Shown here piece by piece: positions 1 through 28,426 of a stretch of 53,665 nt of DNA (its first letter is position 1; every line of letters starts with the position of its first letter). The stretch lies in NCBI GenBank assembly GCA_947629005.1, contig CANRCD010000012.1, forward strand, positions 1 through 53,665, given 5' to 3'. The stretch is from an uncultured Clostridia bacterium. Lineage in GTDB: Bacteria; Bacillota; Clostridia; UMGS1883. The position numbers and the translations under genes are program-made. A model generated the notes under the pieces. That model worked only from the letters and a program-made list of their open reading frames with translations, was not told the DNA's origin and searched no databases.

Positions 1-529
1 GGCTCGCGCCGCTGCTCCTCCTTTTCGCGAAAAGTTTCGCCGCGCTACGGCTACTCGGGCGGATAAGCCGCCCTCATAACGCCTCCGCTTGCTTTTCAAC
101 TTTTCGCGAGTCGCCGCCTTCGGCGGCTTGTCAAGCGTTGCATCGCTTGTTCCGATTTTTTTTAATCGGAACGTGGCTCGCGCCGCTGCTCCTCCTTTTC
201 GCGAAAAGTTTCGCCGCGCTACGGCTACTCGGGCGGATAAGCCGCCCTCATAACGCCTCCGCTTTGCTTTTTCAACTTTTCGCGAGTATGTCGCCTTCGG
301 CGGCTTGTCAAGCGTTGCATCGCTTGTTCCGATTTTTTTGAAAATCGGAACGTGGCTCGCGCCGCTGCTCCTCATTTTCGCGAAAAGTTTCGCCGCGCTA
401 CGGCTATTCGGGCGGATAAGCCGCCCTCATAACGCCTCCGCTTTGCTTTTCAACTTTTCGCGAGTATGCCGCCTCCGGCGGCTTGTCAAAGCCTGTCTTT
501 GCTCCGACGCTTTTTCTTGAAAAAGATCT
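1..529. repeat. Tandem array of ~176-bp structured repeats
   Basis: Three head-to-tail copies begin at about 1, 175 and 354 (periods 174 and 179 bp); the array probably continues off the left edge. Each unit contains several short palindromes: CTTTTCGCGAAAAG, a GCCGCC-TTCG-GGCGGC-type hairpin, and a GTTCCGATT/AATCGGAAC hairpin with a T-rich loop. Copies differ by small indels and point changes, and the third copy degenerates after about 490. Short open frames inside are translations of the repeat and have no ribosome binding sites. There are no unique spacers, so it is not a CRISPR array. Confidence 0.85.
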
Positions 530-540
530 GTGTGGTCTGT

Positions 541-571
541 GCGTAAAAGCCGCGGCTATTCTGCCGCGGCT
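541..571 (-). terminator. Intrinsic terminator of the rluD end of the operon
   Basis: Perfect 9-bp stem (AGCCGCGGC/GCCGCGGCT, 548-571) overlapping the rluD stop codon and followed on the minus strand by a short U-run (A's at 545-548). It closes the long minus-strand block. Confidence 0.7.
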
Positions 572-1488
572 CTTTTTCTGAGTATATCCAGAACCCGTCG
601 AAAATCCTCGGGCAGCGGCGCGGTGAAGCTGACCCGTTCGCCTGTGCGCGGATGGATAAAGCCTATCTCTCCCGCGTGGAGAAGCTGTCCCTCGAGGTTG
701 AATTCCTCGTTTTTCACGCCGTAAGTCTTATCGCCCACAATGGGGTGATGGATGAACCTCATGTGCACGCGGATTTGGTGCGTTCTGCCGGTGCGGAGTT
801 TGCACTCCACAAGGGTATAAGCGCCAAACCGCTCCAGCACACGAAAATCGGTGACGGCATCGCGGGCCCTTTCGGCCTTATGCAGCACAGCCATACGGCG
901 GCGGTCAATGTCGCTGCGGGCAATGGGCGCGTCGATAGTGCCGCTGTCGTCCTTTATGTTTTCGTGCACGAGAGCGTAATAGGTGCGGCTAAGGCTCCTG
1001 TCCTTAAGCTGGGCGGCAAGGCTGAGGTGGGCCCTATCATTTTTCGCGACAACCAAAAGGCCGGTGGTATCCTTATCTATTCGGTGGACAATGCCGGGCC
1101 GAATAACCCCGTTTATAGCCGAAAGCGAACCGCCGCAGTGGTAGAGCACGGCATTCACCAACGTTCCGTCCTCATTGCCGGCGGCGGGGTGAACCACAAG
1201 CCCTCGGGGCTTATTCACCACTAAAACGTCCCCATCCTCGTAGACTATATCAAGCGGGATATCCTGTGGCGCGACGCCGAGCTCTCTCGGGTCGGGCAGC
1301 TCAACATCTATACCGTCTCCAATTTTCAGCACATAGGACGCCGGTCTTACCTCGCCGCAAACGGTGATAAGGCCATCCTCCATGAGTTTTTTCACGCGGC
1401 TGCGGGTTATCCCCTCACCGCCGAGCTGCGCGGCAATGAACCTGTCGGCCCTCTCACTCCGGGTCGCCGTCAAAGAAATCTTCTTCAC
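556..1488 (-). CDS. RluD-family 23S rRNA pseudouridine synthase (YlyB type)
   Basis: Pseudouridine synthase of the RluA/RluD family, expected to isomerise uridines in 23S rRNA. The 310-residue protein has an N-terminal S4 RNA-binding domain (about residues 13-60) and then the catalytic domain with the HRIDKDTTG motif at 135-143, Asp138 being the expected nucleophile. Length is normal for RluD. The start is GTG, overlapping the 3' end of lspA by 35 bp, so the two are translationally linked. lspA-rluD (ylyB) after ileS is a conserved Bacillota order. Which uridines are modified cannot be told from sequence. Confidence 0.93.
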   Translation of the reverse strand: MKKISLTATRSERADRFIAAQLGGEGITRSRVKKLMEDGLITVCGEVRPASYVLKIGDGIDVELPDPRELGVAPQDIPLDIVYEDGDVLVVNKPRGLVVHPAAGNEDGTLVNAVLYHCGGSLSAINGVIRPGIVHRIDKDTTGLLVVAKNDRAHLSLAAQLKDRSLSRTYYALVHENIKDDSGTIDAPIARSDIDRRRMAVLHKAERARDAVTDFRVLERFGAYTLVECKLRTGRTHQIRVHMRFIHHPIVGDKTYGVKNEEFNLEGQLLHAGEIGFIHPRTGERVSFTAPLPEDFRRVLDILRKRAAAE

Positions 1489-28145: not shown

Positions 28146-28426
28146 ACTGGGCCGTAAAAATGCGCGCAGGCCGGCGTCGGAACAAGGTCGGTATCGCTTA
28201 TTTCGATTTCTTAAATCGAAACGCGGTTCACCTCACTGTTTCTCCTTCTCCCCACAAATCCGGCACAGCTGTCTTTGCGGGGTCCCGTGGCTTAATGTCT
28301 TGTATTAAGGCGACTTTGAGCATTAAATTTTGCGGAAATAAAATAATGAATTTATATGGAAAATCCGCTCGTAACGAGCGGATTTTCTGCGTGTTTACGA
28401 ACCATTACTGTCGTTAACATACAAGC
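28146..28426. other. Intergenic region with hairpins and a diverged repeat copy
   Basis: No gene. 28188-28260 resembles the tandem repeat at the left edge (ATCGCTT, a TTTCGATTT/AAATCGAAA hairpin, then a CT-rich stretch). 28359-28387 is a near-perfect 14-bp hairpin (GAAAATCCGCTCGT/ACGAGCGGATTTTC) that could stop transcription of the TSCPD operon. Confidence 0.55.

What the first reader, a model, noticed from the sequence alone, without database searches (positions are those of the whole stretch)
1..529. Tandem ~176-bp hairpin-rich repeats of unknown nature
Three copies with strong internal palindromes and no plausible protein. Copies differ mostly at loops and by indels while the palindromic arms largely persist, as expected for an element acting as structured RNA or DNA (REP/BIME-like or a small-RNA array). 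It abuts the end of a long housekeeping operon.
Basis: seen in the sequence. Interest (0 to 1): 0.55.

Follow-up and report, generated by a model that had tools for sequence, protein, structure and literature searches.

The report
Terminator-bearing repeats behind tRNA genes
The three tandem repeats belong to a family of hairpin-rich DNA elements of uncultured Clostridia, many of which sit exactly at the ends of tRNA genes and carry what looks like the stop signal that those tRNA genes use.

Summary
The array is real: period 179, 2.8 copies at 1-489, with a half-unit to ~525. It is one locus of a dispersed family (37 model hits in the genome). The key lay outside the coordinates: the family's first module often starts 0-3 nt after the CCA of tRNA genes, and its first hairpin plus T-run has the form of their intrinsic terminator. 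Here 8 of 37 modules do so; ~0.003 expected. The window starts at a contig edge; beyond it most likely lies tRNA-Val, as in relative G005. The same isoacceptor can have an ordinary terminator in one species and the module in another; in G005 tRNA-Gly a full element lies between CCA and the terminator that G000 uses directly. Stems covary. Hits are many (30-79) in 6 of 8 genomes of the genus, few in the rest of the order, where 13 of 22 hits examined lie 0-3 nt behind a CCA. Best reading: a non-autonomous, terminator-carrying repeat that docks on tRNA 3' ends and amplifies in tandem; its mover is unknown. REP/BIME membership is not supported.

The parts
1..174 (+). array copy 1 (upstream side cut by the contig edge)
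132..149 (+). internal module: H1 upper stem CAAGCG/CGCTTG; the A arm that completes the terminator in tRNA-adjacent copies is absent here
   Evidence: classes compared
149..172 (+). H2 hairpin (B arm plus T-run paired with A-run plus C arm)
   Evidence: covariation
175..353 (+). array copy 2 (179 nt)
175..200 (+). conserved box GGCTCGCGCCGCTGCTCCTCCTTTTC; contains the D segment GCTCC, complementary to the A arm GGAGC of the tRNA-Val-adjacent copy
199..285 (+). body-1: P1 stem 199-210 with 274-285, enclosing the P2 hairpin 231-247
290..304 (+). unit-terminal hairpin GTCGCCTTCGGCGGC
301..379 (+). second internal module plus box, covariance-model hit 89.7 bits (C12:301-379)
354..489 (+). array copy 3 (shares the first 137 nt of the unit)
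487..525 (+). terminal truncated module (CAAAGCCTGTCTTTGCTCCGACGC-TTTTT-CTTG-AAAAAG), resembling by eye the H1/H2 start of the second ('beta') module type seen behind tRNA-Glu, tRNA-Leu(aag) and tRNA-Gly
545..574 (-). probable own intrinsic terminator of the convergent rluD-like gene (556-1488, minus); not part of the repeat
28175..28250 (+). second, dispersed copy of the module inside the window (57.4 bits), followed by a CCCACAAATCCGG..TTTGCGGGG hairpin

Best explanation
The window array is a tandem amplification of a non-autonomous repeat (~180 nt here) whose home is the 3' end of tRNA genes. SHOWN BY SEQUENCE: in tRNA-docked copies the first unit begins 0-3 nt after the encoded CCA; its first hairpin (H1) plus T-run has the form of an intrinsic terminator for the tRNA operon; H1, H2, a long-range A:D pairing and the P1/P2 body stems are kept by two-sided changes; the same isoacceptor differs between species in having the element or an ordinary terminator; hits are many in one genus and few elsewhere in the order. 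INFERRED: the element arrives as a unit just behind CCA, takes over termination while the former terminator is pushed downstream, and is then duplicated by recombination between units. Internal units, no longer needed for termination, lose the A arm of H1. The window array is the distal part of such a series, between tRNA-Val and the convergent rluD gene. UNKNOWN: what moves it and how the CCA end is recognised.
For: Own genome: 8 of 37 modules start 3-6 nt after the last base of the tRNA model, i.e. 0-3 nt after CCA; expected ~0.003. That is 8 of the 29 operon-terminal tRNAs whose flank could be read. Of 119 distinct modules of at least 40 bits in 109 fetched genus loci, 20 are at a CCA, behind tRNAs for 12 amino acids, and all 20 fold H1 at -19.5 kcal/mol or better. 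The A arm is fully paired (8 of 8 nt) in 19 of 20 tRNA-adjacent, 0 of 5 tandem-internal and 37 of 89 dispersed modules. Synteny: G005 has tRNA-Met, tRNA-Val-CCA-module-tandem units-rluD on one contig; G000 contig C1 ends in tRNA-Met, tRNA-Val and module, and its last 66 nt match the window unit 100%. Turnover between G000, G005 and G001 at Thr(cgt), Leu(cag), Leu(tag), Glu(ctc), Pro(cgg), Cys and Gly(gcc) (details in the full report). Covariation: H2 93.2% paired, 7 of 10 pairs changed on both sides, 53 cells; H1 87.7%, 4 of 13, 34 cells; body 95.1%, 5 of 18, 22 cells; outside the genus H1 91.4%, 4 of 10 and A:D 97.1%, 4 of 5. Outside the genus a P1 stem is found at an offset of 67-71 nt in 17 of 21 copies, and 13 of 22 hits examined start 0-3 nt after a tRNA CCA.
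Against: No enzyme with these ends was found (only Y1 transposases were searched), and there is no clear target-site duplication. Most modules seen in the genus are not at tRNAs (89 of 119 dispersed), and many lie in larger composites, so tRNA docking may be ancestral retention rather than targeting. With a laxer cut (6 or more of 8 A-arm nt paired) tRNA-adjacent and other modules do not differ (22 of 25 against 72 of 94, p = 0.28); the 8-of-8 cut was chosen after seeing the data, and only 5 tandem units were available. The number of pairs with two-sided changes is itself reached by 43, 46, 3, 103 and 23 of 500 shuffles. Turnover compares isoacceptors; orthology of the locus was seen only where flanks could be read on both sides. 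The genomes are fragmented, with breaks and possible misjoins at the repeats; the tRNA-Val/array/rluD order in G000 is inferred from G005. Cells count sequences, not events, and could come from hairpin-templated DNA correction. No transcription data exist.
Confidence: 0.65

Rival explanations
1. The module is simply the native tRNA-operon terminator of this lineage. It spreads between tRNA loci by gene conversion or recombination, and the tandem and dispersed copies are by-products; nothing transposes.
For: Outside the genus 13 of 22 hits examined are at tRNAs, so the tRNA position looks old. Copy number changes at the same locus (tRNA-Val, -Glu, -Leu(aag)) fit recombination. At some tRNAs only the H1 or H1-H2 part is present (Thr(cgt) in G005, Pro(cgg)).
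Against: The body beyond the terminator (P1) is not needed for termination yet is found in 17 of 21 out-of-genus copies. In G005 tRNA-Gly the terminator used by G000 survives downstream of the element, which fits insertion better than replacement. 30-79 hits per genome in 6 of 8 genus genomes, most of those examined away from tRNAs, indicate amplification.
Confidence: 0.2
2. A conserved non-coding RNA made by read-through of tRNA operons, or from the opposite strand; the hairpins are its fold.
For: Fold z-scores near -3.2 on both strands and covariation.
Against: A terminator-like hairpin precedes it, so little of it should be transcribed from the tRNA promoter. A:D has no one-sided changes in 105 cells, and all 10 one-sided cells of H2 lie at the closing pair, which looks more like DNA-level pairing. 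No Rfam family fits. Hits are very uneven (2-79 per genome in one genus).
Confidence: 0.08
3. REP/BIME-REPIN elements moved by a RAYT (Y1) transposase.
For: Intergenic palindromes, inverted pairs of modules in composites, high copy number.
Against: Y1 transposase hits are 0-3 per genome and do not track copy number: none in G006 (47 modules, 86% complete), and the G000 hit is a truncated IS200-looking protein.
Confidence: 0.03
4. The apparent covariation is a by-product of quasi-palindrome correction (hairpin-templated replication errors; recalled concept) in otherwise neutral repeats.
For: Two-sided changes without one-sided intermediates at A:D and most pairs of H2.
Against: The full A arm is paired behind tRNAs in 19 of 20 but in 37 of 89 dispersed modules, and H1 shows one-sided steps, as expected under selection on RNA termination. 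Does not explain the tRNA docking.
Confidence: 0.08

Closest known systems
Intrinsic (rho-independent) terminators of tRNA operons
   Same: GC-rich hairpin followed by a T-run directly behind the tRNA CCA
   Different: Here the terminator is the first part of a ~200-nt repeated, tandem-forming element with further conserved stems
DNA-uptake-sequence terminators (USS/DUS in Haemophilus and Neisseria; passages of PMC5217627 and PMC2267715 seen, which cite PMC1852404, search listing only)
   Same: A repeated sequence family that supplies terminators
   Different: USS/DUS are about 10-nt words in inverted pairs at gene 3' ends; this is a long multi-stem element, often at tRNAs
REP/BIME and REPINs (PMC3116915, search listing only)
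   Same: Palindromic intergenic repeats, also in inverted pairs
   Different: No RAYT found; longer; tRNA 3'-end position; built-in terminator
Bacterial MITEs (example PMC6382973, search listing only)
   Same: Non-coding, multi-copy, lineage-limited, presence/absence between relatives
   Different: No autonomous partner found (narrow search), no clear target-site duplication; the tRNA-docked unit lacks conventional terminal inverted repeats
[quoted passage not shown]
   Same: Repeated palindrome behind tRNA genes
   Different: A short spaced pentamer pair (CGTTA-N9-TAACG) in an archaeon; its authors propose a role in tRNA 3'-end maturation

Membership tests
Intrinsic terminator (H1 part) | stable hairpin immediately followed by a T-run, directly downstream of a gene | tested here: met
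   20 of 20 tRNA-adjacent modules at -19.5 kcal/mol or better, followed by T-runs; termination itself not tested
REP/BIME-REPIN | cognate RAYT (Y1) transposase in the genome (recalled definition) | tested here: not met
   PF01797 hits 0-3 per genome, none in G004 and G006, truncated IS200-looking in G000; genomes are incomplete
REP/BIME-REPIN | 20-40-nt palindrome with a conserved flanking tetranucleotide (recalled definition) | tested here: inconclusive
   palindromes present, but the unit is ~180 nt with several stems
MITE | terminal inverted repeats | tested here: inconclusive
   tRNA-docked unit: A:D complementarity lies within the ~80-nt module, not at the unit ends; composites show inverted modules and seemingly matching outer ends, read by eye
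MITE | target-site duplication | tested here: inconclusive
   G005/G000 tRNA-Gly pair shows none clearly; two out-of-genus copies end in ...CTTCCA, a possible CCA repeat
MITE | autonomous relative encoding a transposase | not tested
   only Y1 transposases were sought
CRISPR array | short repeats separated by unique spacers | tested here: not met
   units are contiguous, with no variable spacers
Known Rfam RNA family | match at the gathering score | tested here: not met
   only tRNA in the window and in 9 element loci; in 5 loci at E<=1 nothing else near a gathering score
Integron attC array | attC sites with an integron integrase | not tested
   no integrase search made

The most novel reading that the evidence does not exclude
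A site-specific parasitic element of bacteria whose integration address is the 3' CCA end of any tRNA gene. It survives there because it brings its own terminator, displacing the host's, and it uses a four-segment (A-B-C-D) DNA fold, either two hairpins or one long hairpin, as the substrate for its own movement; once docked it multiplies in tandem and seeds non-tRNA composites.
Probability: 0.3. Interest if true: 0.8.

Novelty: new variant of a known kind. Interest (0 to 1): 0.6.

Why it matters
tRNA 3' ends are classic integration sites for phages and ICEs, which must keep the tRNA whole (general knowledge). A small non-coding repeat that docks just behind CCA and takes over transcription termination would be a different way to live at the same address. 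It would explain how tRNA terminators turn over between related species, and offers a system in which terminator gain, loss and tandem growth can be followed across genomes. It also marks spots where assembled genomes break or may be misjoined.

Tried and rejected
RAYT/REP hypothesis: Y1 transposase searched in the own genome and in the genus; no correlation with copy number. Rfam: no family. Mobile carriers: two exact-pattern scans of viral contigs gave 0 hits, and distant blastn of one unit gave no match in plasmids or phages. Antiterminator switch: H1 and H2 share the B arm, but the C and D arms lie downstream of the T-run, so a classical leader switch is unlikely (reasoned, not tested). 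H2 was not counted outside the genus because its C arm does not stay in register in alignment A5. tRNA swap: G000 tRNA-Pro(cgg) and G005 tRNA-Leu(cag) precede what looks like the same downstream gene; left open because misjoins at repeats are likely. A mostly blind 685-kb sample of G027 gave 11 operon-terminal tRNAs, 3 with the module (all in stretches picked because they held hits) and 8 with other 3' sequence, by eye mostly ordinary terminators. One search's first measure was flawed: its T-run finder missed short T-runs, so some dispersed modules were folded with H2 included, and its 'tandem' class held 3 modules that are not tandem; one search replaced both and added 5 'tRNA by eye' modules, of which L138 is probably false. 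Two more that look tRNA-adjacent by eye (L224, L253) stayed in 'dispersed'. A MAFFT alignment of the tRNA-Gly pair misplaced the tRNA end; the reading rests on the printed sequences. Literature: searches of the held open-access library listed no paper that, by title and abstract, describes such a family; only passages of two papers were read, and subscription journals are mostly not held.

Full report
OBSERVATION. The window is contig C12 of a 2.04-Mb, 30-contig genome and its first base is the contig edge. TRF finds 2.8 copies of a 179-nt unit at 1-489, 95% matches; ungapped copies start at 1, 175 and 354. The unit folds better than shuffles on both strands (z -3.28 and -3.16). About 487-525 is a truncated start of another unit, followed by what looks like the terminator of a convergent rluD-like gene (545-574).

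A DISPERSED FAMILY. blastn with the unit gives 21 matches on 9 contigs of the genome. Reading their flanks showed that many begin right after the CCA of a tRNA gene. I collected the 3' flanks of the 42 tRNA genes found (two end at contig edges) and defined a module: H1 (A arm, loop, B arm), a T-run, H2 (B arm plus T-run paired with an A-run plus C arm), and a box such as GGCTCGCTCCGCTGCTCCTCCTTTTC. It is followed by body-1 (long P1 stem enclosing the P2 hairpin, often then a GCCGCC-TTC-GGCGGC hairpin) or by a CCCACAAA..TTTGTGGGG-like hairpin, or by neither.

STRUCTURE. On 34 distinct modules H2 is paired in 93.2% of cells, with 7 of 10 pairs changed on both sides and 53 such cells; 0 of 500 shuffles reach the paired percentage, the number of such cells or the covariation score, 43 of 500 reach the number of pairs and 459 of 500 the number of pair types; slid controls fall to 26-60% paired. 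H1 gives 87.7%, 4 of 13 pairs (46 of 500 shuffles reach this), 34 cells. Body-1 (33 sequences) gives 95.1%, 5 of 18 pairs (3 of 500), 22 cells. The modules of A1 were chosen by a pattern on the box, so box conservation there is by construction, the structures were drawn from these sequences, and cells count sequences, not events. Outside the genus (A5: 22 sequences, 21 distinct, two of them from G001, a low-copy member of the genus) H1 gives 91.4% and 4 of 10 pairs (103 of 500), and a long-range A:D pairing, A arm GGAGC/GGAAC/AGAGC/GAAGC/GCGGC/GGGGC with box segment GCTCC/GTTCC/GCTCT/GCTTC/GCCGC/GCCCC, gives 97.1% and 4 of 5 pairs (23 of 500) with no one-sided change. Within the genus this A:D match is complete for GGAAC in 24 of 27 and GGAGC in 11 of 15 but for GTCGC in only 3 of 52. 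A P1 stem with at least 8 of 10 Watson-Crick pairs is found at an offset of 67-71 nt in 17 of 21 out-of-genus copies (L324 and L328 are near-identical; for L319 and L126 shuffled sequence reaches the score 22 and 15 times in 200); L122, L315, L125 and L323 lack it.

tRNA DOCKING. Model R1 finds 37 hits in the genome. Eight start 3-6 nt after the last base of the tRNA model, i.e. 0-3 nt after CCA: C1 Val, C1 Pro(cgg), C2 Tyr, C3 Glu, C4 Lys, C11 Cys, C15 Pro(tgg), C16 Met (positions, names); expected about 0.003. These are 8 of 29 operon-terminal tRNAs with a readable flank; by eye Leu(aag), Gly(gcc), Ala(cgc) and Arg(ccg) have related or degenerate H1 hairpins as well. In 109 fetched genus loci R1 gave 170 matches at E<=0.01; I kept the 120 of at least 40 bits, 119 distinct. 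Twenty are at a CCA (Arg, Cys, Gly, Leu, Lys, Met, Pro, Ser, Thr, Trp, Tyr, Val), all with H1 at -19.5 kcal/mol or better. The full A arm is paired in 19 of 20 of these, 3 of 5 'tRNA by eye', 0 of 5 tandem-internal and 37 of 89 dispersed modules (p about 1e-5 against dispersed). With a cut of 6 of 8 there is no difference (22 of 25 against 72 of 94, p = 0.28), so this contrast depends on the cut.

THE WINDOW LOCUS. Contig C1 begins, on its reverse strand, with tRNA-Met, tRNA-Val, CCA, the module and the start of the unit; its outermost 66 nt equal the window unit 100%. Relative G005 shows tRNA-Met, tRNA-Val(tac), module, tandem units and then the rluD gene (86% identical DNA) on one contig. 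So the window array most likely sits between tRNA-Val and rluD. In the up to 1.3 kb read beside rluD in the six other genus genomes ARAGORN finds no complete tRNA and I see no such array next to rluD; by eye the G002 and G003 stretches hold other pieces of the repeat composites and the G001 stretch begins in a tRNA end.

TURNOVER. I compared 29 (G000), 19 (G005) and 13 (G001) operon-terminal tRNAs by isoacceptor. Leu(cag): ordinary terminator in G000, full module in G005. Leu(tag): other sequence in G000, full module in G005. Thr(cgt): ordinary in G000 and G001, H1 part of the module in G005. Glu(ctc): beta module in G000 and G005, ordinary in G001. Pro(cgg): H1-H2 in G000 and G005, ordinary in G001. 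Cys: module in G000, ordinary in G001. Gly(gcc): G000 reads CCA-TG-GCGTCGGAGCAAAG..terminator; G005 reads CCA-TG-TCGTCGCAAG..full element.. and then GGCGTCGGAGCAAAG..the same terminator and the same downstream gene; gain in G005 is the simpler reading, loss in G000 is not excluded. The series of units behind the tRNA differs between G000 and G005 at Val, Glu and Leu(aag). By eye, two out-of-genus copies (tRNA-Asp L316, tRNA-Met L320) lie between CCA and a further terminator-like hairpin.

DISTRIBUTION. R1 hits per genome in the genus at E<=0.01: 37, 3, 79, 58, 2, 30, 47, 51 (at most 150 candidates are scored per genome, so these may be low). In the 20 other genomes of the order searched, at most 4 at E<=1e-6; in eight of them with hits, 1 to 6 at E<=0.001. 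One search gave 32 rows from ten genomes, two of them of the genus. I examined 26 rows. Of the 22 outside the genus, 13 start 0-3 nt after a tRNA CCA (Val, Arg, Asp, Met four times, Asn, Gln, Lys, Gly, Leu, Ala), 2 lie behind a second copy of a tRNA-Leu 3' end (one of these tRNAs read by eye), 1 behind GGTGCACCA at the end of a recombinase-like ORF, and 6 have no tRNA recognised. Of the 4 in G001 and G004, two in G001 follow tRNA-like 3' ends near contig edges, by eye. Of the six rows left out, three were read (L323, L327, L330) and show no tRNA; three were not looked at. R1 was built from genus copies, so divergent copies elsewhere may be missed. A scan of a set of 84,980 species genomes with an exact genus-type box pattern found 33 stretches, all in five MAGs of uncultured Clostridia whose isolate names begin with 'Lapin' (rabbit, by my reading); records near this genome may be left out of that scan, and the pattern would miss out-of-genus boxes.

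MECHANISM. Shown: position, form of the terminator, conserved stems, interspecies presence/absence by isoacceptor. Inferred: arrival behind CCA with takeover of termination, tandem growth by recombination, relaxation of the A arm in internal units. Unknown: the enzyme. A:D and most H2 pairs change on both sides without one-sided steps, whereas H1 does show one-sided steps; this hints that H1 is selected as RNA and the others as DNA, but relatedness was not modelled.

NOVELTY. Repeats that act as terminators (uptake sequences) and palindromic repeats (REP, MITE) are known. A long, multi-stem, terminator-bearing repeat docked on tRNA 3' ends did not turn up in searches or 91 (listings; passages of PMC5217627 and PMC2267715 seen). 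I call it a new variant of a known kind, the bacterial intergenic repeat.

Noticed in passing
L123 (G014:C61) and L126 (G014:C36), upstream of the module: An insert of roughly 200 bp between a tRNA-Leu and its module carries its own terminator-like hairpin, an inverted T-arm-like stretch (GGACTTGAACC), and ends in a second copy of the tRNA 3' end: looks like a small integrated element with att-like duplication.
   Followed up: partly
L372, L365 and L358 (G027), roughly 40-100 nt behind tRNA-Arg, tRNA-Ser and tRNA-Lys: Inverted T-arm-like stretches (GGGATTCGAACCCTGAGAGGGCACGCG and similar) lie behind ordinary-looking tRNA terminators; possibly a second tRNA 3'-end repeat family.
   Followed up: no
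L128/L063 (G000:C15 ~35.4 kb) and L124 (G020:C44): The module is preceded by GGNGCACCA at the 3' end of what reads by eye like a large serine recombinase ORF, as if a mobile element had integrated at a tRNA 3' end and left the module at its far edge.
   Followed up: partly
L083, L084, L085, L091 and others (dispersed copies in G002, G003, G007): Dispersed modules sit as inverted pairs inside larger composites with outer ends like GGGGCYGTAAAAAA and inward-facing terminator-like hairpins; other modules abut different repeats (TGTAGGGCGGGCTGCC, AAGGCTTCCCCAT).
   Followed up: partly
L042 (G000:C1:55 kb) and L300 (G005:C59): Different tRNAs (Pro(cgg) and Leu(cag)) precede what looks like the same downstream gene in two species: recombination at the repeats, or misjoin.
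   Followed up: no
L035 (tRNA-Thr(cgt), G000:C17) and L055 (tRNA-Pro(ggg), G000:C17): Sequence downstream of these tRNAs reads by eye like phage-type integrase genes, suggesting integrated elements.
   Followed up: no
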